The notes beneath the pieces are model-generated. The model saw only the letters and a program-made list of their open reading frames with translations, did no database searches and was not told the DNA's origin. A stretch of 62,166 bases of DNA, taken from contig CASIBY010000004.1 of assembly GCA_949373095.1 (NCBI GenBank), forward strand, positions 1 to 62,166. Direction: 5' to 3'. Made by a program: the position numbers and the translations under genes. Below are positions 37,752 to 51,366 of this stretch, in pieces. The stretch's first letter is position 1; each line of letters opens with the position of its first letter. Source of the DNA: Candidatus Poseidoniaceae archaeon. Lineage in GTDB: Archaea > Thermoplasmatota > Poseidoniia > Poseidoniales > Poseidoniaceae.

Positions 37752-39446
37752 TCAACAACCTTCCCGCAAAGATGGATCATCAAGTTCAACAGAAACTTGA
37801 GGCTTCAACACCTCGTTTTGAATAAGTTTGGATTCAACTTTTTGTTCAATGACGATTTCAGACGAGACCTCAACTTGCGCCTCTTCAGGCAAGATCTTGT
37901 CTTTTGATTCTTCAATAGGATGTTCGCTAACCGGTTCCTCTTCGGCATTGTCAATCGACTTGCGCTCAACTCTGACCTCATCCATTTGCTTGGCCAATGT
38001 GTCAAGTTCCTGACGTTGCTCATCGATTTTCTTCTTTAGAATTTCATCTCTGGAGTAGAGTGTTTGGATTTTCGACTTTTGCGAATCGATTTTGCGCTTG
38101 AGCTGAGCCACTTCTCGGTCAACCTTTGACCCTACATCACGAATGAGACTCTCCATTGCTTGAATGCGTTGGAGTGCCGTTGCAAGACGTTCGGTTTCAC
38201 TGATTGAATGGAGATTCAACTTATCAAGGGTTTGGAGTTTAGCTTCCATGATGTCGTCAACATCACCCATAGCTACACGTTGCTGGTACAAGACGCCGGG
38301 CAAAATGAACGGAATTTCAGTCTTCCCCTTCTTGGTTTGAACAGCGCGCAATCGGTTTAGGAACTTGTGGTATCGAGCTTCCAAGTCTTCAGCAAGGTTG
38401 ACTTCACCATCAGCAGATTCAGCATCTCGGTTTTGGGCCTTCTTTTCGCTAATAAATACACCATGTTCCTTGCGAATAGGGTCAACGACCACTGCTACAC
38501 AACGGTTTTCGAATGAATGGGTTCGCAACCGACCAAAGGTGTCAACGTCAATTCCTGAAAGAAAAATACCAATGTCCGGATGGGTATGAATCCAACCGAT
38601 GACCCGCAGGTCTGGCGTGTGTGGCCCTCCGGCCTTTTCATTGGCATAATCACATGCAGCAGCAGCAATAGCACTGAACGAGCCATGAAATTCACAATAT
38701 CCAGAGGATGCTTGGTCTTGGCGAGGGAAAAATCCGCAAACTACAACGTTGTTACCATACGAATCAACGTGCCCGATCAAGAGCCCGCCCATTTCAAGGC
38801 GCCCACGCGGCTGAGTGAAAGCAGTGGTTTGTTCGATAATCTCCTTTGGCACAATGGCCTGATATGTTTCGGGACTGCGACGAAAAAGCTTCGTTCGTCC
38901 CTTGTTCTTGACAGAGCCACCGCCAGGGAGAGCCCTCATTTGGATACGGAACGACCGACCGACCATTCCGGCTGCCATTCGGCTGCTTACGACATTACCG
39001 TCGTTGTCCATTACCTCCATTGGCGTACCGTCTCTCGGTCCGCCAACCGCACGCTTGTACACTTGGATGAGCATCTCGCCTTCACCTGGTTGGGCATTAT
39101 GCCGCTCCCCGCTGGGAAGGATGAAAATTACTTCGCGCGGCTTAACCAATGGCTCGTCATCGTCCAAATCCCATGCGTCATCATCATCAAGATCGAGTCC
39201 CGGATGGTTTGCACCCCCAGCAACCTTGGCCACACCTACGTAGACGGTACTGTCGCGATGGTTTGCGACCGATTGGTTGGAGATGACCTTCCCCATTTGA
39301 TCGTACACGTCGAAGTCGCCTTCGGGTGAGAGCTTTTGGTCCTGAACGACCTGCTTCAGGGTTTGACTTGGCTTTGCCTCGATGCGTTGCTTTGCAGTTT
39401 GGTTGAGTGTATTTGCTACGGTTAGGGGGATCATTGTGTTCATCAT
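37752..39446 (-). CDS. Tandem ubiquitin-like domains fused to JAB/MPN (JAMM) metalloprotease with coiled-coil tail
   Basis: 564 aa from the ATG at 39446. This start has a GGAGATGA site with five bases spacing; the frame is open to 39497. Residues 1-78 are a ubiquitin-like beta-grasp domain ending STVYVGVAKVAGG. A poly-Asp linker (LDLDDDDAWDLDDDEP) leads to a second Ubl (about 104-177, REVIFILPSGERH to IQMRALPGGG). The JAB domain has the metal ligands in GRLEMGGLLIGH and WIHTHPDIGIFLSGID (E, HxH, S, D all present). A coiled coil (about 400-490) and acidic tail follow. Expected to cleave isopeptide or peptide bonds after Gly-Gly, so it may process Ubl precursors or remove conjugates. The first 328 bases with promoter are one of three identical repeats. 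Confidence 0.85.
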   Translation of the reverse strand: MMNTMIPLTVANTLNQTAKQRIEAKPSQTLKQVVQDQKLSPEGDFDVYDQMGKVISNQSVANHRDSTVYVGVAKVAGGANHPGLDLDDDDAWDLDDDEPLVKPREVIFILPSGERHNAQPGEGEMLIQVYKRAVGGPRDGTPMEVMDNDGNVVSSRMAAGMVGRSFRIQMRALPGGGSVKNKGRTKLFRRSPETYQAIVPKEIIEQTTAFTQPRGRLEMGGLLIGHVDSYGNNVVVCGFFPRQDQASSGYCEFHGSFSAIAAAACDYANEKAGGPHTPDLRVIGWIHTHPDIGIFLSGIDVDTFGRLRTHSFENRCVAVVVDPIRKEHGVFISEKKAQNRDAESADGEVNLAEDLEARYHKFLNRLRAVQTKKGKTEIPFILPGVLYQQRVAMGDVDDIMEAKLQTLDKLNLHSISETERLATALQRIQAMESLIRDVGSKVDREVAQLKRKIDSQKSKIQTLYSRDEILKKKIDEQRQELDTLAKQMDEVRVERKSIDNAEEEPVSEHPIEESKDKILPEEAQVEVSSEIVIEQKVESKLIQNEVLKPQVSVELDDPSLREGC

Positions 39447-39540
39447 ATTCTTCATCTCCAATTTTTTTCTTGTTTGATTACGTTCGTGCGCTCTCATCTA
39501 CAACGTGGTTCGTTGAGTTTGTTTTCTGTCATTATTGACA
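39213..39540 (-). repeat. 328-bp repeat, copy 1: promoter, leader and ubiquitin-like domain
   Basis: Encodes the first 95 codons of the open frame at 39497 plus 43 bases of upstream DNA including the palindrome. It is identical to copies 2 and 3 except for one upstream base (GAG here, GAT in the others) and the outermost base of copy 2. Identity extends through synonymous positions and non-coding DNA and stops abruptly after the Gly-Gly codons. Confidence 0.95.
39527..39540 (-). promoter_or_regulatory. Palindrome upstream of Ubl-JAMM gene
   Basis: TGTCAATAATGACA on the minus strand, a perfect 5-4-5 inverted repeat with an AT-only centre. It sits 80 bases before the chosen ATG, leaving room for an initiator about 25 bases downstream and a leader with a ribosome site. 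Could be an operator or a composite TATA/factor site. Confidence 0.65.
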
Positions 39541-39543
39541 GAT

Positions 39544-40236
39544 TCACAATACATAGGCATCCTCCCCTTCATTGTAATGTTCTGGACGAACTGTGAGCGT
39601 CGTTCCAAAAAAAGAAGATACCTTTTGTTGTTGGGATACTCTTCTTCGACCTTTCTTCAACACAAGACGTGTTCCGTCTCTCGGTTGATATCCCGTTCGT
39701 GCAAACAATTCTTCAAAGGTTTCATCTTCATTTACGTCGTCTATCAAAACTGAAGGATTCCAGATGAAGTCAAGCGTGAGAGGCGGTGGGGTGAGGCTGA
39801 CCCATTCAATGTGAACTCCCGAAATACATGTTAGGTGAGAACCATCATCTTTCTCAATAAGAACTTCACCCTGGATGTTTTCTTCCTCAAACAAGTAATC
39901 CTCGATACTCTTGATGTATTGATTAAATGTGATTGAAACGCTGAGTTCTCGCTTCTTTTGGGAAATTTCAATAAACGATTCTGAGAGGTCACAATTTAGG
40001 ATATATCGTTTACGGAATTTAACATCAATACTGTTTTTCCCAGCCTTTGCAGCATCCTTGATTTTCTTGTCAAAACGATGAGCTTTCATCAACTTAGAAA
40101 TCTTATTCTTGAGTTCTCTCTGAGCGATACTCTGTAATTTCAAACGAGATTGTTCGCGTTTCTCTTGCTCTCTCTTGATGATGTCGACCAAGCCTTTCTT
40201 TTTTAGATGAATACTAGGGAAAGCGATCTCATTCAT
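39544..40236 (-). CDS. Protein with C-terminal ubiquitin-like (UBX-like?) domain, no Gly-Gly
   Basis: 230 aa. The start ATG overlaps the stop of the E1-like gene (ATGA) behind a GGAGGTG site, so the two are coupled. The N-terminal third is a charged helix (IIKREQEKREQSRLKLQ, RFDKKIKDAAKAGKNS). Residues about 60-150 are beta-rich. Residues about 153-225 look like a beta-grasp domain: TLDFIWNPSVLIDDVNEDET, FEELFARTGYQPRDGTRLVL and SSFFGTTLTVRPE. It ends YNEGEDAYVL, without the GG needed for conjugation. A non-conjugated Ubl domain in an operon with a Cdc48-like ATPase suggests an adaptor role analogous to UBX proteins (inference). No known family recognised. Confidence 0.55.
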   Translation of the reverse strand: MNEIAFPSIHLKKKGLVDIIKREQEKREQSRLKLQSIAQRELKNKISKLMKAHRFDKKIKDAAKAGKNSIDVKFRKRYILNCDLSESFIEISQKKRELSVSITFNQYIKSIEDYLFEEENIQGEVLIEKDDGSHLTCISGVHIEWVSLTPPPLTLDFIWNPSVLIDDVNEDETFEELFARTGYQPRDGTRLVLKKGRRRVSQQQKVSSFFGTTLTVRPEHYNEGEDAYVL

Positions 40237-41735
40237 AGTGACACCTCCACATCAGGCCAAAGTGCTCGTTCCAAACGCCCAACCTGGGCTGTTCGATCCA
40301 ATCTACCATCGGAATGTACGAGATGAAATTCATTCTCGAAGGCATTCCAGTAGACCGATTTAACGACAGAAGTTTGATGCTTTGAGAGACGTTGAATCGC
40401 TGATAGAGCTTGGAAGGCCCCAACGAGTGCATTCGTGAGAACCATTGATGACTGTGGGACTTCACCGTCTTCTTGGCAAGAACTTACCTTGCGGTCTTGA
40501 GCGATTGATTCTCCATAGAGTTCGACCAGTGATGATGACGAAAATTCTCTAAACTCACCGGAATAATTTGCAATTCCTCCATTAGAATAGGGAAGACCTC
40601 GTTGGGCGGCAATCAAATCAGCCAAAACTCGTGGACGCATGGCATCTAGGCAACCCAGTACAAGGTCGGTTTTATTGAGATGTTCAAACACTTCTGAGGC
40701 GTCCAAAACATCAGTAACTTCACTGCCAGAATCAATCGGCTCATCGAAAAATTCATCCAAATCGGCTCCGTCATCACACGCCTCAACCTCATGAACCATC
40801 GAATCTATCAATTCATAGACGATGTCAACCTTTGAGCCTTCAAGCCGTTGGGCAAGCCAGCGACGGGTTGCTTCAATTTTAGGCAGCCCAATATCGGCTT
40901 CGGTGAAAATGACTTGTCGGTTCAAATTATGCCTCTCTACTTCCATGTCCTTGTCAAAAATCAAGAACGAGACGTGCTGTTCCTTTGAACGACGCAATCC
41001 TTCAACAAGCGTGTGCAAACACCATGTGCCAAGACCTCCAGCTCCAACAACCGTCAAGTGACCTTCAAGCCTTGGAGATACGGAAGGCAATTCAAATTCC
41101 AAACATGGAAATTTGGGGAATTGGGATTCATTGAGTGCTCGGATTTCGAGAGCATCCCGCAGTTGAATTGCAATAGGGTCTTCATCGTCCAAACGAAGGA
41201 GGACTCTCCTGTGAGCACTACCATCGTTCGTCTCACGGACATTTTGATGAGTGAGGTGACCCTTCAATCCAAATTCAAGTTGCGAGATATTCGTATGCTG
41301 TGAGTTTTCATTCACCCTTACGTTCACTGAAACTGAAACCTTCGGGATTTCGACCGGCGTATATGCCTGTGAACGCCGAAGGATTTCACTCCAAACCATG
41401 CAGGCTGCAATGGTGGCGATTGAGGGCTCATAAACAGGGTCAACCGCTGAAGCAGAGACTCTTCCATCCAAATAGATTCCATGCGTGTCGTAGGTCACTG
41501 CAATCTTATTCGGGTTAATTTCAATGTCAACTGCTTTTTGACCACTCCAACTCACACTGTAAGAAGCCTCTGGTGGAGTCACTGGAAATGTATCAACACC
41601 AAGATGCTCTCCTAGACACACCATTGCATCCTTGAACGGCTCCGGCATTGCGTCCTCACTGGCTAGGTGAACTCGAAGTCCTTGGACTACCGATTGACGA
41701 ATCAGTCCACGTTGGCGGGAAAATCTATCACTCAT
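40233..41735 (-). CDS. E1-like ThiF-family Ubl-activating enzyme with degenerate N-terminal half
   Basis: 500 aa from the ATG at 41735, which overlaps the stop of the AAA ATPase gene. It opens RFSRQRGLIRQSVVQGLRV, the entry sequence of a ThiF fold, but no nucleotide-binding glycine loop follows in the first 220 residues. The active adenylation domain begins near residue 226: LTVVGAGGLGTWCLHTLVEG, IFDKDMEVERHNLNRQVIF (the D-x-D...NLNRQ element), GLPKIEAT (Lys that contacts ATP) and LVLGCLDAMRPRV. A candidate catalytic Cys is in SSCQEDGEVPQSS. Would adenylate the Gly-Gly terminus of the Ubl and form a thioester. Second of two E1-like genes in the locus. Confidence 0.8.
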   Translation of the reverse strand: MSDRFSRQRGLIRQSVVQGLRVHLASEDAMPEPFKDAMVCLGEHLGVDTFPVTPPEASYSVSWSGQKAVDIEINPNKIAVTYDTHGIYLDGRVSASAVDPVYEPSIATIAACMVWSEILRRSQAYTPVEIPKVSVSVNVRVNENSQHTNISQLEFGLKGHLTHQNVRETNDGSAHRRVLLRLDDEDPIAIQLRDALEIRALNESQFPKFPCLEFELPSVSPRLEGHLTVVGAGGLGTWCLHTLVEGLRRSKEQHVSFLIFDKDMEVERHNLNRQVIFTEADIGLPKIEATRRWLAQRLEGSKVDIVYELIDSMVHEVEACDDGADLDEFFDEPIDSGSEVTDVLDASEVFEHLNKTDLVLGCLDAMRPRVLADLIAAQRGLPYSNGGIANYSGEFREFSSSSLVELYGESIAQDRKVSSCQEDGEVPQSSMVLTNALVGAFQALSAIQRLSKHQTSVVKSVYWNAFENEFHLVHSDGRLDRTAQVGRLERALWPDVEVSL

Positions 41736-43891
41736 GGAATCACCCAATCATCATCATCATCATCATTCCAGTCCTTTTGTTCGGGAAGTTCATTTGCATA
41801 ACCTGCAAACAAATGAGGGCTGCTCGCAAGGGCTGCGATCATGTCTCTCTCTTCTAGGGATGCATCGGATTCTCCATGTCCAATGGACCGAGAAACTGCA
41901 TAACGCTTGGCGGTGTTGATAAGGCCGAAGAGGTCTGCCCCTGTAGCCTCATCAACCATTCTGTTGATCAAAACAGCCCACTGGTCTTCAGTAATTGAAG
42001 AAAGGCATTCCTTTACTTCGTTCTCAAAGAAACGCTTGAATGCGTTCTTTGGAAGGGGCCCAACATGGATGGCACGCTCAAAGCGGCCAGGGCGCAAAAA
42101 GGCACGATCAACCAATTCAATTTGGTTCGTAGAAGCCATGAGGTAGATGTCCTCGTTGTTTCCGAGCCCATCCATGATGGACAGCAATTGAGCGACAACC
42201 GAGTTTGAATGGGAGGATCCTTCCCCGCCGTCCCTTTGTCGTCCAAGAGCATCAAATTCATCGAAAAAGATGACAACCGGGGCTGCTTCTTGAGCAGCTT
42301 GGAACAATTCTCTGACAGCGCGTTCAGATTCACCGACCCACTTTGACAGCAACTCGGGGCCCGAAACCGCCATAAATTGAACCTCAGATAGGCTTGCAGC
42401 AGCCTTGCCCAGCATTGTTTTACCAGTACCAGGTGGCCCGTGCAAAATAACACCGCCATTGCAGTTCAATCCCATTGCAGCAAACTTTTCTTTGTGAAGA
42501 ATTGGCAGTACCAAATGCTCTCGCAACTCTTGCTTCGCTTGTTCATGTCCAATGACTTGGTCCATGTCATGGTATCCCATGTTTGCAGGTCGTCGGTTTT
42601 CCAACTGATACGGCGTTGCTCGGACCATCGCGTCTGAAAAGTCTTCATCTAGGATTTCCAACTCTGAAAGTTCCTCATCACTGAGAGGTTCTTGCTGCTT
42701 CAAACGCTCTCCAAACACGCGTCGCATGGCAACCACGGCTGCATGTCGGCAAAGGTTGGCAAGGTCTGCTCCGGTAAATCCGTTGGTCTTTCTCGCCCAA
42801 TCTTCCAAAGCGAACTCAGCTTCTAGGGGCATTGAAGAGGAATGAATTGTCAAAATTTGTTCACGGCCTGAGATGTCGGGATAAGGAACGTGGATTCTTC
42901 GGTCAAAACGACCCGCTCTTAGAAGTGCTCCGTCGATGGAATCCATCATGTTTGTAGAACCTACAACTAGAACCTGTCCCCGATCCTCGAATCCATCCAA
43001 TTCAGTGAGCAATTGCGTCAAGATGCGCTTTTCAAGTTGGCCCTTTCCATCCTTACGAGACCCCGAGATAGCATCTATTTCATCAATATAAATCACCGAT
43101 GGGGCCTCTTTCTTGGCTTGAGCAAACACTTCTCTGAGTTTCTTTTCAGATTCTCCATAATTTGCTGAGAACAATTCGGGCCCGTTGATTGAGATAAAAT
43201 TACATTGCGCCTCTCGTGCTAGGGCCTTAGCAAGGAGGGTTTTACCAACGCCAGGTGGCCCGTACAACAAAATACCCTTTGGTGGGTCTTGCCCAGCCTT
43301 TTGATACACTTCAGGATGAACAAGCGGAACAATTGCAATTTCCTTAACTTCTTCGATGGTTTCGTCGAGACCTCCAATGTCCTCAAAGGAAACACTCGGA
43401 ATATTCTCCCCATTACGGCGAACAGGGGTTGATTTAATCACAACACGCGTGTTTGAAACCAACCAACCATGAGCGGGCTTAATGCCAGAAGCACAGACTT
43501 CAATCTGTTCTCCGTTCACAGTGGCGACAAAACGATCGCCCTTTGACACGTACACTTCTCCAAGAAGTTTGACTGCTCGTTGTAGGTCCTCCTCATCAAT
43601 TCCATGCTTGAGGGGTTGAAACCTAATCTTCTGAATGACTTGAGCATCCACCGGTGCAAGGGATACAACATCTCCTTCGGCGACATCAGCGTTAATTCGC
43701 ATTGTAGCTCCCATCAACATATGACCGGATTCGACCTCATCAGAGATCACCAATTGGGCAACGGTCTTCTTAGAACCGCTCAGCATTACTGGCGAGCCAG
43801 CGTGAAATCTTCCTTGCGCACTATCTTCATAACAGATAGCAATCTTGTTCTCTCCAACTTCGGCTGTTGCTTGACATGTAAATTCCATCAT
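41732..43891 (-). CDS. Cdc48/p97-type double AAA+ ATPase
   Basis: 719 aa. A double-psi-barrel-like N-domain (about 1-165) is followed by D1 with Walker A GPPGVGKT, Walker B YIDEIDAI and arginine fingers in ALLRAGRFDRRIH, then D2 with GPPGTGKT, FFDEFDAL and AFLRPGRFERAIH. The acidic terminus NDDDDDDWVIP mirrors the acidic tail of Cdc48/VAT that recruits partners. Unfolds or extracts protein substrates in the cytoplasm, in eukaryotes mostly ubiquitinated ones. It differs from a housekeeping VAT in its D1/D2 linker (EEELSELEILDEDFSDAMVR-type). First gene of an operon with an E1 and the Ubl-like adaptor, which makes a Ubl-directed unfoldase likely. Confidence 0.92.
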   Translation of the reverse strand: MMEFTCQATAEVGENKIAICYEDSAQGRFHAGSPVMLSGSKKTVAQLVISDEVESGHMLMGATMRINADVAEGDVVSLAPVDAQVIQKIRFQPLKHGIDEEDLQRAVKLLGEVYVSKGDRFVATVNGEQIEVCASGIKPAHGWLVSNTRVVIKSTPVRRNGENIPSVSFEDIGGLDETIEEVKEIAIVPLVHPEVYQKAGQDPPKGILLYGPPGVGKTLLAKALAREAQCNFISINGPELFSANYGESEKKLREVFAQAKKEAPSVIYIDEIDAISGSRKDGKGQLEKRILTQLLTELDGFEDRGQVLVVGSTNMMDSIDGALLRAGRFDRRIHVPYPDISGREQILTIHSSSMPLEAEFALEDWARKTNGFTGADLANLCRHAAVVAMRRVFGERLKQQEPLSDEELSELEILDEDFSDAMVRATPYQLENRRPANMGYHDMDQVIGHEQAKQELREHLVLPILHKEKFAAMGLNCNGGVILHGPPGTGKTMLGKAAASLSEVQFMAVSGPELLSKWVGESERAVRELFQAAQEAAPVVIFFDEFDALGRQRDGGEGSSHSNSVVAQLLSIMDGLGNNEDIYLMASTNQIELVDRAFLRPGRFERAIHVGPLPKNAFKRFFENEVKECLSSITEDQWAVLINRMVDEATGADLFGLINTAKRYAVSRSIGHGESDASLEERDMIAALASSPHLFAGYANELPEQKDWNDDDDDDWVIP

Positions 43892-43935: not shown

Positions 43936-43949
43936 TGTCAAATATGACG
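43936..43949 (-). promoter_or_regulatory. Palindrome upstream of AAA ATPase operon
   Basis: CGTCATATTTGACA on the minus strand, matching the locus palindrome at the conserved arms (TCA...TGACA). It lies 44 bases before the ATG at 43891 and includes the stop codon of the upstream E1-like gene. This implies that the operon has its own promoter inside the end of the preceding gene. Confidence 0.55.
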
Positions 43950-45494
43950 CAAACATGGTTCGTTAAACCAAGGTGGCTTTGAATTCACTTGAATTCGCTC
44001 AACTGCGCCTTTATGCCACTGCAAGCGAGGCGCTGACTGTTCGGTCAGTTCTGATGCTTCAATGAGGCCAAGTGCCGCCATCATCGCACCAGCCCAGGCT
44101 GTTGTAGTAGCAATGGAAGCAATTGGTCGTGCACCTTCTTCAGTACAGGAGATGACCTCGGATTCATACGCGGAATCCCGCCCATAACGACAGACCATAC
44201 AACCTTCTGAAGCATTCAAACGTTCTACAATAGCATGAACAGATTCACTTCCGCCGTTGATCATTGTTGCTTTGAAGTTCAAAGCTGCTTCATTTAGAAG
44301 AGTACGAGCGCGCATGTTATCGAGGCAACCAAAATACAGTGAACTGGATGTGAGGGCATCGGTAAGATAACTGCCAGGGCCATCTTCGTCAAGGTCAAAG
44401 ATAAGCTCGTCACTTTCGTCATCCTCTTCGACGTTCAAATGCCCAGGCAAAAGGTGTTCTTCGTGAGCTACGATGGTGATGTTAGCATTGAGTTCTTTGA
44501 GCTGTTGCTCTGCAACGGTGGCTTTTGCTTGTCCTACGTGTGTTTCGTTGTAGAGTACTTGTCGATTCAAGTTATGCTGTTCAATGGAAAGATCGCCGTC
44601 AACAATATGAAGAGTTCCAGAAGGCATTTGTTGTGCCAGCAATGGTGCTGCCCAACTACCCAAGCCTCCAACACCCAACATCACAGCATCGACTGGCAAG
44701 ACTGAGGTCAATCCATCCAACTCGGTTGGCATCGAATTCCAATCTATCAATCCAACATTGTGATGCAAATCAACTTGCTTTTGTTGATGTTCCTTCTTGA
44801 TGTTGATAAATTGGTATGGATTTCCTGGCATCGGATAAGGAACTCTCACACGCGCAAGAGTTGCAAGTCCATCGCTTGTTGGCTGATAGGACATTGGAAT
44901 TCCGTTCATTCCAGCAACATATTCTGCCGCCATGCTGGTGTCAGTTGTTTCAATGCGGCATGTTACAGTGAACCAAGCATCGCTAACCGAAATTTGATTC
45001 TTTGCCCCAATGTAGGTTAGCATTGTTTCAACCAACGCTGAAGCACAAGCAATGCGAAGTGACGGAGTCAATGGATGGCTCTCGTGTTCGAATTGTCCCT
45101 TGGCGATTGGTTCATTTGAAATCAATGCCCGAGGACCCCATGAACGGCCATACAGGTTGGCTGCATGTTCTGAACTACCGTTCAGTGAAAGATGAATGTC
45201 CCATTCATCACTGTCTGCACAATCCACGACCACATACTTGTTTTCGGAAGTTGTAACGAGTTCAGAGAATGTTGCTGACTTTGGAAAGGCAAGCTTCCAG
45301 AATACAGATGTTGGGGCCTTATGATGTTCACAAAGAATTCCGATACGCCCCTTTCCTCCTGCAATTCCTAGTTGTTGAAACAGCACAATCAAATCTGCAA
45401 TTCCTTCATTTGAACCTGAAACAAGGACATTGAGTGACTGGAGGCGTTCTTGGTCAACCAAGCCAAGTTGTCGGAAAAAACGGTTCTGCATCAT
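43938..45494 (-). CDS. Two-domain E1-like Ubl-activating enzyme (inactive N-half, active C-half)
   Basis: 518 aa, with a GGGAGGT site; the ATG directly follows the stop of the upstream Ubl-E2 gene. The N-half opens RFFRQLGLVDQERLQSLNVLVSGSNEGIADLI, a ThiF Rossmann start in which the glycine loop is altered (GSNEGI). It lacks the ATP and metal residues, like the inactive adenylation domain of eukaryotic UBA1/AOS1. The C-half, from about residue 265, is intact: VMLGVGGLGSWAAPLLA, IVDGDLSIEQHNLNRQVLY, GQAKATVAE, YFGCLDNMRARTLL, a CMVC pair possibly for Zn and the likely catalytic Cys in VISCTEEGARPIAS. Expected to activate the Ubl encoded in the gene just before it. Confidence 0.83.
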   Translation of the reverse strand: MMQNRFFRQLGLVDQERLQSLNVLVSGSNEGIADLIVLFQQLGIAGGKGRIGILCEHHKAPTSVFWKLAFPKSATFSELVTTSENKYVVVDCADSDEWDIHLSLNGSSEHAANLYGRSWGPRALISNEPIAKGQFEHESHPLTPSLRIACASALVETMLTYIGAKNQISVSDAWFTVTCRIETTDTSMAAEYVAGMNGIPMSYQPTSDGLATLARVRVPYPMPGNPYQFINIKKEHQQKQVDLHHNVGLIDWNSMPTELDGLTSVLPVDAVMLGVGGLGSWAAPLLAQQMPSGTLHIVDGDLSIEQHNLNRQVLYNETHVGQAKATVAEQQLKELNANITIVAHEEHLLPGHLNVEEDDESDELIFDLDEDGPGSYLTDALTSSSLYFGCLDNMRARTLLNEAALNFKATMINGGSESVHAIVERLNASEGCMVCRYGRDSAYESEVISCTEEGARPIASIATTTAWAGAMMAALGLIEASELTEQSAPRLQWHKGAVERIQVNSKPPWFNEPCLRHI

Positions 45495-46178
45495 TCAGAC
45501 CTCCCTTGCATAATCATCTGGATTTGGATGCTTCAATACATGAATAAGATGGTCGAGAAAGACTCCAAACTTCATGAGGCGGTCGCAGGGATTATCCTGC
45601 CATTCCGCTGCCCATTGGTCTCGGAACGAATCTCCAGTACAAACAGCACTGAGTTCCCTGTTTGGAGCAATAGCAAAAACTTGGCTAGGATAGATGTTTG
45701 AGTGTTGAATCTCTGAAGACTTCGGAGAGAGAACGTAGGCGGATGGAAGAGCCGGAAGCGAACGAAGGTCAATCAGCACAGTGTATTCGATCGTTGACGT
45801 GTCCCAGTGTGACTTAACACCTGGAATGGGCAATACAAGTGCCCCAACATGTGCTTCAGAGGAATACTTCGTGATGTGACGAATGCGAGGAAATTCAATT
45901 GTTTTCAACTGCTTAAATTCTTGGGGAGAAATACCTCCAATTGCACCCCCAGCAACCTTGGCCACACCTACGTAGACGGTACTGTCGCGATGGTTTGCGA
46001 CCGATTGGTTGGAGATGACCTTCCCCATTTGATCGTACACGTCGAAGTCGCCTTCGGGTGAGAGCTTTTGGTCCTGAACGACCTGCTTCAGGGTTTGACT
46101 TGGCTTTGCCTCGATGCGTTGCTTTGCAGTTTGGTTGAGTGTATTTGCTACGGTTAGGGGGATCATTGTGTTCATCAT
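45495..46178 (-). CDS. Ubiquitin-like domain fused to E2-like (UBC fold) domain, copy a
   Basis: 227 aa from the ATG at 46178 (GGAGATGA site). Residues 1-78 are identical to the Ubl of the JAMM protein and end VAKVAGG followed by Ala, as in a cleavable precursor. The rest has the order of a ubiquitin-conjugating fold: helix, strands (AHVGALVLPIPG, IEYTVLIDLRS), LPSAYVLSP, then IQHSNIYPS in the position of the HPN motif, the candidate active Cys in LSAVCTGDSFRDQW, and a closing helix FGVFLDHLIHVLKHPNP. Similarity to canonical E2 is structural rather than obvious. Translationally coupled to the E1-like gene that follows, which supports an E1-E2 pair. Confidence 0.7.
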   Translation of the reverse strand: MMNTMIPLTVANTLNQTAKQRIEAKPSQTLKQVVQDQKLSPEGDFDVYDQMGKVISNQSVANHRDSTVYVGVAKVAGGAIGGISPQEFKQLKTIEFPRIRHITKYSSEAHVGALVLPIPGVKSHWDTSTIEYTVLIDLRSLPALPSAYVLSPKSSEIQHSNIYPSQVFAIAPNRELSAVCTGDSFRDQWAAEWQDNPCDRLMKFGVFLDHLIHVLKHPNPDDYAREV

Positions 46179-46271
46179 ATTCTTCATCTCCAATTTTTTT
46201 CTTGTTTGATTACGTTCGTGCGCTCTCATCTACAACGTGGTTCGTTGATTTTGTTTTCTGTCATTATTGAC
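45945..46271 (-). repeat. 328-bp repeat, copy 2
   Basis: Second copy of the promoter/leader/Ubl repeat, at the head of the Ubl-E2 copy a gene. Identical to copy 3 throughout except that its palindrome ends in CG rather than CA at the outer base. Differs from copy 1 at one more upstream base. Confidence 0.95.
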
Positions 46272-46272: not shown

Positions 46273-46334
46273 TATTTACAAATCCGTTAATGTCCTCAAG
46301 TATGAGCCCCACCACGCACATTATCCTCACCTCA

Positions 46335-46658
46335 TCAAGCTGCAGCAGCCGCATGACGAGCGACTGAACTTATTTTTTCAATATCGAAATGTTGCATGCA
46401 ACGTCCGAACCTTCGGGTAATGTGATTTGGGATATGAGCAACCCAGCTCTGGGTTCGGTCGTTCCATTCAAACGATGGCTTGCACTGAGAAACAGCAAGT
46501 GCAATCGTCTTGTTACGAGCTTCAACACTCTTGGGCTCACAGCCGCAGGAACGGAAGTAAGTGTTGGAGTTGCTGCGCGCAGGGTCGTCCTTTCGAGGAC
46601 GGCGGTTGCCGTTGTGATTTCGCTTGTGATGATTCATAATTCTCTTGTTCTTTCCCAT
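46335..46658 (-). CDS. Small basic protein of unknown function
   Basis: 107 aa from the ATG at 46658, placed five bases after GGAAGTGA. That leader resembles the Ubl leaders (TGAAGAATATG in both), and the palindrome 92 bases upstream is similarly placed. The open frame extends to 46721. The N-terminus is His/Asn/Arg/Lys-rich (NHHKRNHNGNRRPRKDD). The middle has FRSCGCEPKS and SQCKPSFEWNDRTQSWVAHI. It ends in Ala repeats. Contains four Cys. Nucleic-acid or protein binding is possible, but I recognise no family. Sits alone between the Ubl-E2 copy a and the membrane protein gene. Confidence 0.5.
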   Translation of the reverse strand: MGKNKRIMNHHKRNHNGNRRPRKDDPARSNSNTYFRSCGCEPKSVEARNKTIALAVSQCKPSFEWNDRTQSWVAHIPNHITRRFGRCMQHFDIEKISSVARHAAAAA

Positions 46659-46750
46659 ATTCTTCACTTCCTGATTTATTTTGTTCACTGTTCTGTAATT
46701 CGGTTTGTTCGGTTCCTTCATCTAATAGGGGTCATGATAACGCAGTATTG

Positions 46751-46764: not shown

Positions 46765-46808
46765 GAAATCTAGCCTCGGTTCTGAGACTGGATTTTGTTG
46801 AAACAAAA

Positions 46809-47396
46809 CTATGAAAAGAAACCGAAGAACCAAAGGAGAACGCTATTCGCATACACGAGAATTGAGTAGATGAGCCAAAATGGAAAGAGGATGATCGCCA
46901 CTGCAGTCCAAAAGAGAGCCTCAATCACCTCAAAAATGAAGGTGATAATCGAGACGACAAGATTGATGACAAACGAAATCGCTTCAACAATCGCATTGAC
47001 CACATCAAGAATAAAATTTACAACCTCAAGTACGGCATTAATGATGGTTTCAATGACATCGAATACAAATTGGACGATTTCAAGGACAATGGACACTACA
47101 AAAATTCCTGCAACTACAACAACGTAGCCAACTACGAGAATCGCAGCAAGCAGTAGCAATTTTGAAAGGATGTCCCAATAATTAAACGATTCATTTTGAC
47201 GTTGATTTCTCTGTGCGTTTTGATGGTGATGGTGCCCCATATACCTGTCCGCAATATCCACAAAATGCTGGGCTGGTCGTTGACGAACAGGTTCGGCGCG
47301 ATGCTGGCGCTTTTTGGGTTTTGAAAGAACGACTTTCCTTGCGCCTCTTCGAGCAGGCTCACCAGGGAGGTCATTCAAATCCAATCCATCATCCAT
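46809..47396 (-). CDS. Membrane protein with long hydrophobic helices, unknown function
   Basis: 195 aa from the ATG at 47396 with a GGTGAAGG site, 22 bases after the stop of Ubl-E2 copy b, so probably co-transcribed. Residues 1-75 are soluble and basic with a His stretch (DRYMGHHHHQNAQRNQ). The rest is one hydrophobic region of about 115 residues: LLLLAAILVVGYVVVVAGIF, then a heptad-like series rich in Ile/Val with regularly spaced Asn/Glu (VIETIINAVLEVVNFIL, VVNAIVEAISFVINLVV, IFEVIEALFWTAVAIILF), ending LLWFFGFFS. The periodic repeats could be amphipathic helices in a pore or membrane-shaping protein. A membrane effector or anchor of the Ubl system is possible (inference). Confidence 0.55.
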   Translation of the reverse strand: MDDGLDLNDLPGEPARRGARKVVLSKPKKRQHRAEPVRQRPAQHFVDIADRYMGHHHHQNAQRNQRQNESFNYWDILSKLLLLAAILVVGYVVVVAGIFVVSIVLEIVQFVFDVIETIINAVLEVVNFILDVVNAIVEAISFVINLVVSIITFIFEVIEALFWTAVAIILFPFWLIYSILVYANSVLLWFFGFFS

Positions 47397-47418
47397 GACC
47401 TTCACCTTTTTTCACATG

Positions 47419-48075
47419 TCATGAGTTGAGCAGATTCTGAATATGATTTACATAAGCTCCCACGCGTGCAATGGGGTCGTTTCCGAGTCGATTCAGGTGT
47501 GGTAGAATATTTCCATGACAGACCCAATGACCTCTTCTTCTAGAGCCTGGAATCGTTCCATTACCTGAGCCACTGGCATAAGAGACCGAAGGTGGATTTG
47601 GGTACAAAGAAACTCCTGGACGGGTGGAAATTTCATCAAAATTGAGGACATAAGCGTGCATGAGACCGGATGAAGCATTTGGGCAATATACCACAACTTC
47701 CCAAAATCCACTCTTCGTCTTTCCATTGGATGGAAACCTTAGTCGGAGCATTTGGGCGCTTGACTTTGTCAAATGCTGCTTTACTGGTTGGAGCGAAGGA
47801 TACTCAATTTGAAGTTCCTTCACCCTATTACGAGGGACAGAACCCCCAGCAACCTTGGCCACACCTACGTAGACGGTACTGTCGCGATGGTTTGCGACCG
47901 ATTGGTTGGAGATGACCTTCCCCATTTGATCGTACACGTCGAAGTCGCCTTCGGGTGAGAGCTTTTGGTCCTGAACGACCTGCTTCAGGGTTTGACTTGG
48001 CTTTGCCTCGATGCGTTGCTTTGCAGTTTGGTTGAGTGTATTTGCTACGGTTAGGGGGATCATTGTGTTCATCAT
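47419..48075 (-). CDS. Ubiquitin-like domain fused to E2-like domain, copy b
   Basis: 218 aa from the ATG at 48075. Residues 1-78 are the same Ubl as in the other two fusions, ending VAGG followed by Ser. The second domain is shorter and unlike copy a in sequence, but shows the same layout: LRLRFPSNGKTKSGFWEVVV strands, LMHAYVLNFDEI, a Tyr-Pro-Asn element (SLYPNPPSVSYA), the candidate catalytic Cys in RRGHWVCHGNIL and a final helix (ARVGAYVNHIQNLLNS). The WVCHG motif resembles the Cys site of divergent bacterial E2 proteins. It probably accepts the Ubl from one of the two E1 enzymes. Followed by the membrane protein gene. Confidence 0.65.
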   Translation of the reverse strand: MMNTMIPLTVANTLNQTAKQRIEAKPSQTLKQVVQDQKLSPEGDFDVYDQMGKVISNQSVANHRDSTVYVGVAKVAGGSVPRNRVKELQIEYPSLQPVKQHLTKSSAQMLRLRFPSNGKTKSGFWEVVVYCPNASSGLMHAYVLNFDEISTRPGVSLYPNPPSVSYASGSGNGTIPGSRRRGHWVCHGNILPHLNRLGNDPIARVGAYVNHIQNLLNS

Positions 48076-48169
48076 ATTCTTCATCTCCAATTTTTTTCTT
48101 GTTTGATTACGTTCGTGCGCTCTCATCTACAACGTGGTTCGTTGATTTTGTTTTCTGTCATTATTGACA
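47842..48169 (-). repeat. 328-bp repeat, copy 3
   Basis: Third copy of the promoter/leader/Ubl repeat, at the head of the Ubl-E2 copy b gene. The unique sequence on both sides (AACCCCC after the Gly-Gly codons; CCCTTATCC upstream of the palindrome) is unrelated to the flanks of the other copies. Confidence 0.95.
48156..48169 (-). promoter_or_regulatory. Palindrome upstream of Ubl-E2 copy b
   Basis: TGTCAATAATGACA on the minus strand, a perfect inverted repeat, four bases downstream of the stop region of the ART-like gene. Same spacing to the gene as in the other repeat copies. Confidence 0.65.
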
Positions 48170-48173
48170 GCCC

Positions 48174-48704
48174 TTATCCATGTGCGACAAGTCCCCAACT
48201 CAGAAAGAACACATATGCCAGTACACCTGTACAGAGAAGGAAAATCTTTCGTGAAAACCCGTAAGTGAACAAAGGGGGTTCATTCTGATTCGGTCGCAAC
48301 TCTCTCTTGACATAGACAGGGTCAGTGGAAATGTACATCCATCCATGACGTGGATGTGGAACTTTTGCGAATTTCATCTGGTTGGTATCGACCCTGTAAA
48401 CAGACCCAATACGATTTGGAGTAGTTCCTTGAAGATAGCACTCAATCAATGTTTCCAAACCTTTCTCAGCAGTATACAGTCGGGCAACTTGAATGTCGCC
48501 GGTCAAAAATACAAGAGGAGGAATTCTATGAAGATAAGACGAGTTTTTCAAAAAATTAGCCTGGGGTTTGATTTCTTTTAGACCCGTAATGGGTGAACCG
48601 TGGTATAGCGGTTCAACGACCGAAGAGGCATACTTGAGGCGACTAGGCACGTCAACGATGTTCTGAAAAGAATCGTCCCGGTTTTTGCTTCCCTTCCAAA
48701 ACAT
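48174..48704 (-). CDS. Putative ADP-ribosyltransferase-like domain protein with C-terminal TM helix
   Basis: 176 aa from the ATG at 48704 behind an ACAGGTGATTT site. The soluble part has EPLYHGSPITGLKEIKPQ, then PPLVFLTGDIQVARLYTAEKG and GSVYRVDT. A YHGS strand followed by a strand with Thr and an A-x-x-Y helix is the layout of small ADP-ribosyltransferase-fold proteins with an H-Y-x triad; the third residue is not clear. The C-terminus is a TM helix (KIFLLCTGVLAYVFFLSWG). Membrane-tethered ART domains are known in conflict and modification systems. It sits within the Ubl locus, downstream of the small Zn protein. The family call is tentative. Confidence 0.45.
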   Translation of the reverse strand: MFWKGSKNRDDSFQNIVDVPSRLKYASSVVEPLYHGSPITGLKEIKPQANFLKNSSYLHRIPPLVFLTGDIQVARLYTAEKGLETLIECYLQGTTPNRIGSVYRVDTNQMKFAKVPHPRHGWMYISTDPVYVKRELRPNQNEPPLFTYGFSRKIFLLCTGVLAYVFFLSWGLVAHG

Positions 48705-48736
48705 CAAATCACCTGTAACATCTTTCTTTGAGGATT

Positions 48737-48925
48737 CTAATCAATTTCATATTTCGTACCAGCGATGTAAAAATACTCTTCATTTGATCTCCACTCCCCG
48801 AGGTTATCATCGCAACATGCGCAATAATAGTAATCACCTCTTGTAATCAGTTTTGGATGATCACAATCTTCGTAGAATCTGCTGCATTCTTTGGTTCCAC
48901 ACTTCTTACACGATTTCTTGCTCAT
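48737..48925 (-). CDS. Small Cys-rich zinc-binding protein
   Basis: 62 aa from the ATG at 48925, with a strong AAAGGAGATG site; longer in-frame extensions upstream lack a site. Cys and His are arranged as CKKCGTKECSRFYEDCDHP and, after 14 residues, YYCACCDD, enough for one or two zinc sites of the treble-clef or ribbon type. The end FYIAGTKYEID is short. Function unknown. In the same direction as, and 33 bases ahead of, the ART-like gene. Confidence 0.6.
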   Translation of the reverse strand: MSKKSCKKCGTKECSRFYEDCDHPKLITRGDYYYCACCDDNLGEWRSNEEYFYIAGTKYEID

Positions 48926-48980
48926 ATTGACATCTCCTTTGGGGTGTTTATCTTGAAAGGGACGTGACGAAGTTATTTTC

Positions 48981-48994
48981 TGTAAAATTCGACA
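48981..48994 (-). promoter_or_regulatory. Weak palindrome match upstream of small Zn protein gene
   Basis: TGTCGAATTTTACA on the minus strand, arms TGTC and TACA with two changes from consensus, 55 bases before the ATG at 48925. The weakest member of the set. Confidence 0.3.
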
Positions 48995-49047
48995 TGTGCT
49001 GTACTCATACTGAAAAAATAGGAATAATGAATAGATTCTCATGATGG

Positions 49048-50169
49048 TTATTCTGAATACGTATCCAACGAATCAGCTGAAAACATATGCTGTGCTTCAG
49101 GAAGAAGACCTTCTTTGAATTTAATTTCAAGGTCCTTAAGCCGGTTGGAGAGACCTGCAGGGGAGAGTCCAACTGCTCCTGCAACACGTCCGAGCTGATG
49201 CTTCTCCATGCCAAGGATAGCCAAGGCAGAAAACATCACACATCCTGAAAGGTAACCAATTGCAAGGTTAGCCATAGGGCCGTCGGCAGATGGTTCATCC
49301 AAGTCCGTCATAAGGTTCCAAAATATGTGGTGAATTGATTTCAATTCATTCTCGTCGAAATGCGGAGCAAGTGTTCCAATCAAGTTTTCAGCAGCAATAT
49401 CAAATTTATCGGCTCGCAGAGCAGAGCGTTCCATGACATCTGGAATTACGGCCCATCCCATTCGACAACGTGCTTTATAGGATTTCGAAATTGTCTGCTT
49501 TGCATTACGGAATTGCTTATTTGAGATCCCATACTGCTCCATGATTGGCATTGGATTGAATGCGGGTGTTCTCAACCACTTGTGAGAGAGCGTTGCAACC
49601 GCAAGGGCCATAATTTGCAAATTATGCTGATGGCTATTCCCTCGGATTCCCTTTGGTTTACGAGTGATGGAGGTCTTTGGGCAGATCAATGCAGTTTTTT
49701 CTCCAGATGACAATGTTCTACGAATGGCTTCTCGTTCATGTGACAATTTTCGACAAGCAGCATCAACCAAATGAGTGGTAGCACGAGCCAAATTTTCGCC
49801 AAACATGGTTGAAAGCGTTTGCTTTAGTTCGCGGCACATGGGGTCTTGTTCGCGTTGACTTGAGCGATCGGCCCTACCCAAACGGATGAATACCTGACGC
49901 TGGGCTGATGTAAGGCGATTTCCTGCATAATCGGTTCGGTCTCCGAAAGGATTCATTCGACCTCCTTTGGCTGAATTAGGATTGTTAGAAAACACATCGA
50001 TCGCTTCGCTATGGCGAGTGTCTCCTAGGCTTGAGCTGCTGTTAGTGTCTGCATCAAGAGTGTAATGATTGTCAACCAAACCACAATCTGAACAGACTCG
50101 CTCAGCTCGGGTAATATCCAAGTCAAATGTCGTTCCAAGGCAGTCTTCACAAGGGGCGTTATTGGTCAT
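49048..50169 (-). CDS. tfb: Divergent transcription initiation factor TFB
   Basis: 373 aa from the ATG at 50169; the site GGAGATGA five bases upstream decides the start over the GTG at 50202. N-terminal zinc ribbon: CEDCLG and CSDCGLVDN separated by about 15 residues, as in TFIIB. Region 50-95 (the B-reader/linker) has SLGDTRHSEA and RMNPFGDRTDYAGNRL. Two cyclin-like repeats follow (QHNLQIMALAVATLSHKWL and LAIGYLSGCVMFSALAILG...GRVAGAVGLSPAGLSNRL, the second with the helix-turn-helix that reads the BRE). It is more divergent than a housekeeping TFB. Placed inside the Ubl locus behind the same palindrome, it may direct RNA polymerase to these promoters (inference). Confidence 0.82.
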   Translation of the reverse strand: MTNNAPCEDCLGTTFDLDITRAERVCSDCGLVDNHYTLDADTNSSSSLGDTRHSEAIDVFSNNPNSAKGGRMNPFGDRTDYAGNRLTSAQRQVFIRLGRADRSSQREQDPMCRELKQTLSTMFGENLARATTHLVDAACRKLSHEREAIRRTLSSGEKTALICPKTSITRKPKGIRGNSHQHNLQIMALAVATLSHKWLRTPAFNPMPIMEQYGISNKQFRNAKQTISKSYKARCRMGWAVIPDVMERSALRADKFDIAAENLIGTLAPHFDENELKSIHHIFWNLMTDLDEPSADGPMANLAIGYLSGCVMFSALAILGMEKHQLGRVAGAVGLSPAGLSNRLKDLEIKFKEGLLPEAQHMFSADSLDTYSE

Positions 50170-50231
50170 TGCATTCATCTCCGGTTGAGGTGGTTGCCTC
50201 ACTAATAAGGGGCTTTGATTAAGCCAATATC

Positions 50232-50245
50232 AGTCATTTTTGACA
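50232..50245. promoter_or_regulatory. Palindrome upstream of tfb
   Basis: AGTCATTTTTGACA on the plus strand (TGTCAAAAATGACT on minus), 62 bases before the tfb ATG. Identical as a 14-mer to the copy between the two divergent operons at 51398. Confidence 0.6.
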
Positions 50246-50262
50246 CAAAACAATACGATGCC

Positions 50263-51366
50263 TCATTCATTGGTTCGGCCCCCCTTTTTGCTGAAATCAC
50301 GGGGAAAACCAACTACCCGAAGAGCTCGCTTGTACCGCGTATGGCGCTTCAATTGAACAATGACCCAGCGACCACGATAGTTGTCAAGCGGATGCTCTTC
50401 GCTGTTGATCAATGTGCATTCCACATTATCCTTCATCATCGGGTTATGCAGATGGACCGTACGACCCTGTTCTGGAATCTTGATGAACTGCGTCATTCCG
50501 TATGAAAATCCCTCGAGATTCACCAAGTTAGGACGTGACTGGTTGCTCTTTGCCACCAAGATCCCACGCTTTGGGGATGGACTACTCTGCACTGAACCGC
50601 ATACCAATACAGGCCAGGAATTGGGGCCTATGGTTCGACTTCGGTGAATGGGCGGGTCCAACTGAACGATTGAAAGGTTACCAATTTCCACATGCCTGCT
50701 CTTGGTACGACCACCAGGCCTTGCCTTAGGCAGATATGGTGTGAAGTCCCGAGGAATCGGCGTGACATCTTCACGAAACTTGACGCTGTGCAATTCTGTG
50801 ATCTCCCATGCAGACCAAAGGCCTCTGATTGCATCAAGTCGTTCCTTTTCGCATTCCAACTTCACCTTGTGATCACACAATCCGGTTTCGGGATTATAGA
50901 GATTTGATGCGGCTCCCTTCAGTGGTACTTGCAGAAAAACCAATCCCTGTGTGGAATAATAGGGAGGTTGTGGCGAGAACTGATACCCAACCAAATGATC
51001 ACCCCTTTTCCAAGAGGTAATGTAAGCGGTGGTGAACGTGTCAACCACTCCCCCCAGCACCGTAATATCACGGCCAAGATGGTCTTGTGACGGAGCGAAA
51101 TATGGGCCTCGTAAGTGGTCAATCCATATTTGAGCCACATTTCTCGGTGGTTCAACACGAATAACATCAGGACCTGAATGCGCTTTTTGATAATTGACCA
51201 TCATGCCATGAGAATCAGATAATAAACGATAGGAGCCATCTCTAGATGCAAGACCGTTGGTCCTCATGACATCATTAAGTGTTGAACTCTCATCAACGAT
51301 GGAAACAACGGTGGAATAGTCCGCATCTGGAAACAGAATTGTGAGACGCTTGACTTCCCTTGTCAT
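50263..51366 (-). CDS. Unknown protein with N-terminal ubiquitin-like beta-grasp domain
   Basis: 367 aa from the ATG at 51366; the open frame begins with a TTG two codons earlier. Residues 1-75 have beta-grasp order: VKRLTILFPDADYSTVVSIV, a helix STLNDVMRTNGL, then SYRLLSDSHGMMVNYQKA and DVIRVEPP. No Gly-Gly follows, so it would not be conjugated. The remaining 290 residues are mostly beta with many Pro and aromatic residues (GYQFSPQPPYYSTQGLVFLQ, GRTVHLHNPMMKDNVECTLI, RWVIVQLKRHTRYKRALRVV) and no recognisable catalytic motif. No ribosome site; CATAAATA lies about 25 bases upstream, so the transcript may be leaderless. Last gene of the locus on this strand. Confidence 0.55.
   Translation of the reverse strand: MTREVKRLTILFPDADYSTVVSIVDESSTLNDVMRTNGLASRDGSYRLLSDSHGMMVNYQKAHSGPDVIRVEPPRNVAQIWIDHLRGPYFAPSQDHLGRDITVLGGVVDTFTTAYITSWKRGDHLVGYQFSPQPPYYSTQGLVFLQVPLKGAASNLYNPETGLCDHKVKLECEKERLDAIRGLWSAWEITELHSVKFREDVTPIPRDFTPYLPKARPGGRTKSRHVEIGNLSIVQLDPPIHRSRTIGPNSWPVLVCGSVQSSPSPKRGILVAKSNQSRPNLVNLEGFSYGMTQFIKIPEQGRTVHLHNPMMKDNVECTLINSEEHPLDNYRGRWVIVQLKRHTRYKRALRVVGFPRDFSKKGGRTNE

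What the first reader, a model, noticed from the sequence alone, without database searches (positions are those of the whole stretch)
37752..51366. A complete, apparently undescribed ubiquitin-like conjugation locus in a euryarchaeon
Seen: three genes starting with one ubiquitin-sized domain ending Gly-Gly, two ThiF/E1-like enzymes, two E2-like domains, a JAMM protease, a Cdc48-type double AAA ATPase, a Ubl-like protein without GG, a TFB, and a small Zn and an ART-like membrane protein, all on one strand within 14 kb with coupled starts. Known: archaeal SAMP systems usually have one E1 and no E2; full E1-E2-JAMM sets are described for Caldiarchaeum/Asgard lineages and in bacterial operons. Inference: this is a separate, self-contained modification system, perhaps inducible and used in stress or defence.
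Basis: partly seen in the sequence, partly recalled or inferred. Interest (0 to 1): 0.95.

Follow-up and report, generated by a model that had tools for sequence, protein, structure and literature searches.

The report
Archaeal ubiquitin-like system beside Cas10-like cyclase
A marine archaeon carries, on a variable genomic island, what looks like a complete miniature ubiquitin pathway whose tag is encoded three times as near-exact DNA copies at the front of its own enzymes, next to a relative of the CRISPR alarm-molecule enzyme Cas10, which hints at an antiviral role.

Summary
The locus encodes a ubiquitin-fold modifier ending Gly-Gly, two E1-like proteins, two E2-like domains (E2a modelled as a UBC fold; shared Cys), a JAMM protease and a Cdc48-like double AAA ATPase. 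The TFB is weakly supported; no profile supports the ART-like protein. (1) The three modifier heads are one DNA sequence: tracts of about 327 nt with 0 or 1 mismatch that stop at the Gly-Gly codons. Relative G178 has its own 99% pair, while copies in different genomes mostly share 58-73%. Homogenisation by recombination is the simplest reading. (2) The gene 43 bp downstream is a divergent Cas10-like polymerase, beside the JAMM gene in three genomes. Seven of 318 genomes of the order have it, five of them among the 12 with the E2. CARF genes lie in or near some related loci. Best reading: an accessory, probably antiviral Ubl-conjugation system of Poseidoniales, plausibly controlled by nucleotide second messengers. 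Conjugation, cleavage, signalling and defence are inferred, not shown. Ten full-text searches of an incomplete library listed no description of it.

The parts
35516..37708 (+). Cas10-like (palm polymerase/cyclase) protein, convergent with the JAMM gene
   Evidence: hhalign of family A7 (5 members) against 7 Cas10 proteins: 95.9%, E 5e-9 over the palm-1 region; one control pair 0.2%; collinear motifs DGGGR, FDGNAIG, AGDD; Pfam palm2 E=0.011 in 1 of 5 members; the window protein itself matches no such Pfam or NCBIfam model
37752..39446 (-). Ubl1(GG)-acidic linker-Ubl2-like(GGG)-JAMM-coiled coil
   Evidence: JAB E=7e-7; E218, HTHP 287-290, S297, D300 invariant in 4 of 4 aligned homologues; Ubl1 identical to the other two heads over 222 nt. 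Start at 39446 is inferred; Ubl2 by eye
39544..40236 (-). conserved 230-aa accessory protein; C-terminal part looks Ubl-like, no GG end
   Evidence: homologues in G008 and G122 near the same genes, 32% and 43%; Ubl-like by eye only
40233..41747 (-). E1b: N-terminal half plus C-terminal ThiF/E1 domain
   Evidence: ThiF E=3e-23; ATP-site residues and candidate catalytic Cys invariant in 8 of 8 aligned E1a/E1b sequences
41732..43891 (-). Cdc48/p97-like double AAA ATPase
   Evidence: two AAA stretches, E=8e-86; CDC48_N E=2e-6, below its cut-off; homologues in related loci
43938..45494 (-). E1a: N-terminal half plus C-terminal ThiF/E1 domain
   Evidence: ThiF E=8e-30; best PDB hits of the joint E1 profile are ThiF, MoeB, SUMO and ubiquitin E1
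45495..46178 (-). Ubl1-GG-E2a
   Evidence: AF2 models, Foldseek; candidate Cys in A1 and A9
46335..46721 (-). small protein, function unknown
   Evidence: ORF only
46809..47405 (-). protein with a hydrophobic C-terminal half, probably membrane-bound
   Evidence: sequence; weak homologue in G122, 35.7% over 56 aa
47419..48075 (-). Ubl1-GG-E2b
   Evidence: 66% and 73% to the orthologues in G008 and G122; aligned with E2a, same Cys; not modelled
39213..39541 (-). Ubl repeat copy 1 (JAMM): 329 nt shared with copy 3, 1 mismatch
   Evidence: converted to window coordinates; 300-nt core 39209-39508
45945..46271 (-). Ubl repeat copy 2 (E2a): 327 nt shared with copy 3, no mismatch
   Evidence: converted; core 45941-46240
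47842..48168 (-). Ubl repeat copy 3 (E2b)
   Evidence: converted; core 47838-48137
   Evidence: no family match
48737..49042 (-). small Cys-rich protein
   Evidence: ORF, no Pfam match
49048..50202 (-). possible TFB-like protein (zinc ribbon)
   Evidence: Zn_Ribbon_TF E=9.7e-4, below cut-off
50263..51372 (-). conserved first gene of the operon (X50263)
   Evidence: homologues in G122 (42%) and G178 (28%), there too divergent from the 51480 family
51480..53156 (+). divergent regulator-like protein with a C-terminal winged HTH; CARF-like by eye, not confirmed
   Evidence: HVO_A0261_N E=2e-6, below cut-off; hhalign against confirmed CARFs only 13%; homologues beside or near the Ubl genes in G122, G178, G183
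53153..54700 (+). partner gene of 51480 with zinc-ribbon motifs
   Evidence: homologues adjoin the 51480 homologue in G178 and G134; PADR1 zinc ribbon E=0.0047, below cut-off

Best explanation
An island-borne ubiquitin-like conjugation system of Poseidoniales. The modifier (about 78 aa, ending VAGG) is made as the N-terminal head of three precursors: Ubl-E2a, Ubl-E2b and Ubl-Ubl2-JAMM. The JAMM protease cuts after Gly-Gly and frees one identical modifier and the mature enzymes. E1a and/or E1b adenylate it and take it as a thioester, E2a and/or E2b pass it to targets, and the Cdc48-like ATPase unfolds tagged proteins, perhaps for the cell's 20S proteasome. The three heads stay identical because recombination homogenises them and because all must fit one E1/E2/JAMM set. 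Expression or activity is controlled by nucleotide signalling: the Cas10-like neighbour makes a cyclic oligonucleotide on infection, and CARF-type or wHTH proteins respond. Shown: gene content, modelled folds of Ubl and E2a, conserved active-site residues, DNA identity, Cas10 homology and linkage. Inferred: cleavage, thioesters, targets, signalling, antiviral role.
For: Ubl fold and E2a fold; E1 ATP-site residues and Cys invariant in 8 of 8 aligned; candidate E2 Cys in 8 of 8 of A1 and 12 of the 13 A9 rows that reach it; JAMM ligands 4 of 4. Repeat tract ends at GG. E2 in 12 of 318 genomes of the order. Cas10-like family: hhalign 95.9%, motifs, convergent with JAMM in the window, G178 and G211, in 7 of 318 genomes, 5 of them with the E2, P=6e-7 without correction for kinship. 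CARF or CARF-nuclease models match at E<=1e-3 in 7 of the 9 candidates (best: G072 3e-22, G076 8e-14, G134 2e-11) and 1 of 9 (inside the G122 operon, 1.8e-9). Empty site: in G022 the DoxX-like gene lies 0.4 kb from the homologue of window gene 61068. Two proteasome-family genes in the genome.
Against: No biochemistry. 7 of 12 E2 genomes show no Cas10-like gene, and G134 and G019 have it without an E2 hit; but only 2 of the 12 are in the best quality class. In G076, G211 and G307 the Cas10-like gene and the E2 are on different contigs. No curated Cas10 model recognises the window protein; it reads AGDD rather than GGDD and may be inactive. The window's own 51480 is not confirmed as CARF, 8 of 9 further candidates gave no CARF match, and the G076 and G134 CARF genes are not on a contig with Ubl genes. 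One E2a row (G183) has Ser in place of the Cys (74). In G122 the two Ubl copies are only 73% alike. E2 hits have modest scores.
Confidence: 0.6

Rival explanations
1. The Ubl pathway and the Cas10-like gene are independent tenants of one island: defence genes cluster, and neither controls the other.
For: 7 of 12 E2 genomes lack a Cas10-like hit; G134 has it with CARF genes but no E2 hit. A NACHT/STAND-like gene (31761-35285; NB-ARC below cut-off) lies in the same island.
Against: Same convergent junction with JAMM in three genomes of three genera; CARF genes inside the Ubl gene row of G122.
Confidence: 0.3
2. The Ubl heads are not released. They are permanent docking domains that tether E2s and JAMM to a common partner, and their identity reflects one recent spread of a domain cassette.
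For: No free-standing Ubl gene noticed in the loci read (not searched systematically); in G178, G183 and G100 E2a lacks the full head, so heads can be dispensable.
Against: GG invariant in 10 of 10 aligned Ubl sequences, tract ends there, JAMM in the operon; G178 and the window each have their own homogenised copies although Ubl-E2b is shared by both.
Confidence: 0.15
3. A general SAMP/Urm1-like sulphur-carrier or protein-modification pathway without a role in defence.
For: Two further ThiF-family genes and two proteasome-family genes in the genome; archaeal SAMP precedent (recalled).
Against: Two E2-like domains, presence in only 12 of 318 genomes, island position, Cas10-like and, in some relatives, CARF neighbours.
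Confidence: 0.12
4. The identical copies are an assembly artefact of a metagenome bin.
For: Repeats are a known cause of mis-assembly; 5 of 24 contig ends of relatives fall within 60 nt of a Ubl (P=3e-4; distance limit chosen afterwards, partial matches counted), which shows that assemblers break there.
Against: Each copy is in frame with a different downstream domain and has its own flanks; G178, whose record is AG-333-I22, shows the same pattern independently.
Confidence: 0.05

Closest known systems
Caldiarchaeum subterraneum ubiquitin operon (PMC5654768: search listing with start of abstract; PMC6043591: abstract and outline)
   Same: archaeal Ub, E1, E2 and JAMM/Rpn11-type protease, precursor processing
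   Different: RING E3 there, no RING match among the proteins scanned here; nothing about repeated Ubl-enzyme fusions or a Cas10-like neighbour in the little I read; here an accessory island
Bacterial BilABCD (PMC11354881: passages; antiviral role recalled)
   Same: Ubl, E1, E2 and JAB/JAMM in one operon; BilD has an inactive and an active adenylation half, and E1a/E1b may too (by eye)
   Different: separate Ubl gene, one E1 and one E2, four genes; PADLOC BilD model matches E1a (3e-5) and E1b (3e-4) only weakly
CBASS Cap2/Cap3 (PMC10097602: abstract and outline)
   Same: a nucleotide cyclase coupled to E1/E2 and deconjugating enzymes in defence
   Different: there the cGAS-like cyclase is itself the conjugated protein; here a separate Ubl and a Cas10-like enzyme
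FtsH-ternary systems with Ubl-E2 fusion (PMC7159879: passages)
   Same: Ubl fused to E2, JAB proposed to release it, AAA+ partner
   Different: described there with EAD1, vWA-MoxR, caspase-like effector and RING E3, mainly in bacteria
Panoptes/mCpol and type III CRISPR Cas10-CARF signalling (PMC12657218: passages)
   Same: Cas10-type palm polymerase; 40% of mCpol genes reported with a CARF-2TM partner
   Different: no Ubl pathway named with mCpol in the 12 of 22 places shown; here a two-palm Cas10-like layout

Membership tests
Ubiquitin-like E1-E2-Ubl-JAMM conjugation system | beta-grasp modifier with terminal Gly-Gly | tested here: met
   (model, not experiment)
Ubiquitin-like E1-E2-Ubl-JAMM conjugation system | E1 with ATP site and candidate catalytic Cys | tested here: met
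   by sequence only, 8 of the 10 E1 sequences then in hand were aligned
Ubiquitin-like E1-E2-Ubl-JAMM conjugation system | UBC fold with conserved Cys | tested here: met
   E2a; E2b by alignment only; 1 of 13 rows has Ser
Ubiquitin-like E1-E2-Ubl-JAMM conjugation system | JAMM metal-ligand motif | tested here: met
   4 of 4 aligned; partial or interrupted copies not aligned
Ubiquitin-like E1-E2-Ubl-JAMM conjugation system | thioester and isopeptide formation | not testable with these tools
   needs biochemistry
Cas10/CRISPR polymerase superfamily | palm-1 region, zinc cluster, palm-2 with acidic motif in order | tested here: met
   hhalign covers palm-1 only, the rest by motif; zinc cysteines by eye; AGDD in 4 of 5, GGDD in G076
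Cas10/CRISPR polymerase superfamily | match to curated family model over cut-off | tested here: not met
Type III CRISPR-Cas | other Cas genes and array | tested here: not met
   no Cas1 in the 82% complete genome; no direct repeats of 20 nt or more within 500 nt in 31.6-55.6 kb (96); PADLOC scan of ten island genes gave one chance-level Cas match (Cas8g, E=0.019, on E1a)
CBASS | CD-NTase with Cap2/Cap3 | tested here: not met
   no CD-NTase among the Pfam matches listed for 20 proteins or the ten scanned with PADLOC
Bil systems | BilA double Ubl plus BilB/C/D set | tested here: inconclusive
   weak BilD matches to E1a and E1b only; E2b and AAA proteins were not scanned with PADLOC
CARF regulators (window 51480) | CARF Rossmann fold | tested here: inconclusive
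   hhalign 13% (78); PADLOC match E=0.024 only at the HTH end; homologues in G178, G183, G134 no match

The most novel reading that the evidence does not exclude
A ubiquitin pathway run as the effector arm of a Cas10/CARF second-messenger immune system: infection makes a Cas10-like enzyme synthesise a cyclic oligonucleotide, CARF proteins switch on the operon, and one modifier, stored as DNA-identical heads of its own E2s and protease, is released and attached to targets that a dedicated Cdc48 unfolds. The heads are kept identical by gene conversion, a prokaryotic parallel of concerted evolution in polyubiquitin and ubiquitin-ribosomal fusions.
Probability: 0.35. Interest if true: 0.95.

Novelty: new variant of a known kind. 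Interest (0 to 1): 0.87.

Why it matters
It would place a full E1-E2-JAMM-Cdc48 module in uncultivated marine archaea, link ubiquitin-type tagging to Cas10/CARF signalling in archaea, and offer a compact case of a modifier kept uniform by recombination. It makes the question of how ubiquitin systems relate to defence modules directly testable with expressible proteins.

Tried and rejected
Viral or plasmid origin: scans with E1a and the Ubl found no relatives in viral contigs; E2b has no match in plasmids. CARF identity of 51480 by hhalign: too weak to claim. PDB sequence search with E2 profile A1: only chance-level hits, so the fold had to be modelled. PDB search with the Cas10-like profile A7: one chance-level hit. 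The first fold search was swamped by ubiquitin hits, so E2a was modelled alone. Bacterial-type promoter scan: 14 found, 18.5 expected; terminator-like sites 24 found, 13.8 (sd 3.3) expected, an excess I did not interpret (a bacterial-type scan on an archaeon). The genome-contig scan found 8 loci and missed the divergent G072 copy, so it finds close relatives only.

Rows dropped before counts: the G122 E2b (L055) was left out of A5 and A9 because it contains X; one G183 E2a copy that looks frameshifted was left out of A5 and A9. A1 used the 8 E2 sequences recognised by then. A2 used 8 of 10 E1 sequences then in hand (left out: the long G072 fusion and the truncated G009 copy). A8 used 7 of the 8 PF22335 loci (L077, shorter and Cmr2-like by eye, left out). 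A12 used 4 JAMM sequences. The gene name DoxX is by eye, not from a search.
Full report
Observation. The window is one contig of an 82% complete, 1.87-Mb genome. The 8 named records found with its Ubl are titled Euryarchaeota, uncultured euryarchaeote or Candidatus Poseidoniales. On the minus strand from 51372 to 37752 lie, in order, X50263, a possible TFB, a small Cys-rich protein, an unknown protein, Ubl-E2b, a hydrophobic (probably membrane) protein, a small protein, Ubl-E2a, E1a, a Cdc48-like ATPase, E1b, a 230-aa accessory protein and Ubl-Ubl2-JAMM. Pfam supports both ThiF domains, JAB and AAA over its cut-offs, and CDC48_N and the TFIIB zinc ribbon only below them.

Folds and active sites. 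The Ubl-E2a model (13 rows, pLDDT 78.9, pTM 0.59) gives a ubiquitin-type fold for the head, and ubiquitin chains dominate the 50 rows listed of 894. The E2a domain alone (14 rows) gives pLDDT 87.6 and pTM 0.83. Of the 50 rows listed, 49 are by title E2 chains or fusions (Rad6, Ubc9, Atg3, UFC1 and others) and one is an RWD domain. Scores are modest: E-values 0.008 to 0.16, none of the 205 matches at 0.001 or below, TM-scores 0.34-0.54 of the query. The candidate catalytic Cys is present in 8 of 8 sequences of A1 and in 12 of the 13 A9 rows that reach it; the G183 row has Ser. E2b was not modelled. E1a and E1b share GxGGLG, HNLNRQ, Lys, Asp and SCxE residues in 8 of 8 aligned sequences; their roles are recalled from E1 biochemistry. 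JAMM ligands are invariant in 4 of 4 aligned.

Three identical heads. The repeat finder gives three 300-nt copies at 100, 100 and 99%. Pairwise, E2a and E2b share 327 nt without a mismatch, JAMM and E2b 329 nt with one; JAMM and E2a align over 341 nt with 4 mismatches, all outside the Ubl itself. The tract starts about 105 nt upstream of the MIPL codon and stops at the Gly-Gly codons or a few bases after. In G178 (record AG-333-I22) the JAMM and E2b copies are 99% identical over the Ubl and also part just after Gly-Gly. Between genomes the Ubl is 58-73% identical, except G122 against G211 E2a (94%) and G178 against G183 (85%). G122's own two copies are only 73% alike, so homogenisation is not universal. 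Copies alike within a genome and unlike between genomes, in fusions that both genomes share, is the signature of concerted evolution. The mechanism (gene conversion) is inferred.

Distribution. The E2 profile finds 12 of 318 genomes of the order, 2 of 35 of the best quality class, in 8 of 22 genera, and no further ones among 339 genomes of the class. In G022, a genome of the same genus, the DoxX-like gene lies 0.4 kb from the homologue of window gene 61068, so the stretch that holds the locus in the window is absent there; in G005 other ORFs sit between the DoxX-like gene and the homologues of 60776-61068. This is a variable island. In G183, G076 and G280 the second Ubl-like domain is fused to E2b.

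The Cas10-like neighbour. Gene 35516-37708 ends 43 bp from the JAMM gene. Its family (A7, 5 members) matches 7 Cas10 proteins by profile comparison at 95.9% (E 5e-9) over 79 columns of the palm-1 region; one control pair gives 0.2%. Motifs are collinear: the window has FDGNAIGKLFT where a Cas10 of the same phylum has IDGNMMGRIFT, then AGDD against GGDD. Against this, no curated model recognises the window protein, and one of five members matches the palm-2 model, at E=0.011. The gene is convergent with JAMM in the window, G178 and G211. The family is in 7 of 318 genomes, 5 of which have the E2 (hypergeometric P=6e-7, kinship ignored); in G076, G211 and G307 the two are on different contigs. 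Seven of the 12 E2 genomes show no Cas10-like match. No Cas1 was found and no array-like repeats in the island.

CARF genes. In one search, 7 of 9 candidate proteins from related loci match CARF or CARF-nuclease models of PADLOC at E<=1e-3: G072 3e-22 (same contig as its Ubl genes), G122 1e-4 (in the row of Ubl genes), G260 6e-4, three in G076 (best 8e-14) and one in G134 (2e-11), the last four beside Cas10-like genes and not on a contig with Ubl genes. In one search, 1 of 9 further candidates matches: the G122 gene next to the one above, 1.8e-9. The other 8, among them the homologues of 51480 in G178, G183 and G134, do not. For the window's own 51480, PADLOC gives only an HTH-end match (E=0.024) and hhalign 13%. 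Its position, divergent from X50263, is conserved in G122 and G178.

How it most likely works. JAMM releases the modifier from its precursors, E1 and E2 transfer it, the Cdc48-like ATPase unfolds tagged proteins, and nucleotide signalling sets when this happens. All of these steps are inferred. The weakest links are the coupling to the Cas10-like gene and the antiviral role.

Literature. Ten full-text searches ran. No title or abstract start that they listed describes this system; lists 37, 82 and 99 were capped (15 of 26, 20 of 35, 10 of 130). 'Poseidoniales' with 'ubiquitin' gave two papers, each with one mention of Poseidoniales. The library lacks preprints and most subscription papers, and one relevant paper that I sought was not held. 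The closest published systems (Caldiarchaeum, Bil, CBASS Cap2/Cap3, FtsH-ternary Ubl-E2, Panoptes) were seen as listings, abstracts or passages only.

Noticed in passing
window 31761-35285 (+): 1174-aa NACHT/STAND-like ATPase (NB-ARC E=9e-4, below cut-off) in the same island; not between the Cas10-like gene and the DoxX-like gene in G019 (L074).
   Followed up: partly
L054 8405-9599 (G183): E2a is duplicated in tandem (96.8% over 525 nt); one copy looks frameshifted and the other has Ser in place of the candidate Cys.
   Followed up: partly
L073 1781-9630 (G076), L072 8301-18857 (G134): Cas10-like genes with CARF genes nearby, in G076 also a CARF-nuclease type, in G134 without an E2 hit: possibly a separate Cas10-like/CARF system of Poseidoniales.
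   Followed up: partly
window 48130-48144, 46233-46247, 39501-39515: The shared leader of the three Ubl genes holds a small inverted repeat (CAACG...CGTTG).
   Followed up: no
L022 13414-14855 (G072): The Ubl-JAMM gene of G072 appears interrupted in this assembly.
   Followed up: no
L101 (G001) 3-3866: A genome of the same genus has homologues (86-93%) of 53153-54700, 54738-55496 and 56083-57927 on a 4-kb contig but no close E1a match.
   Followed up: no
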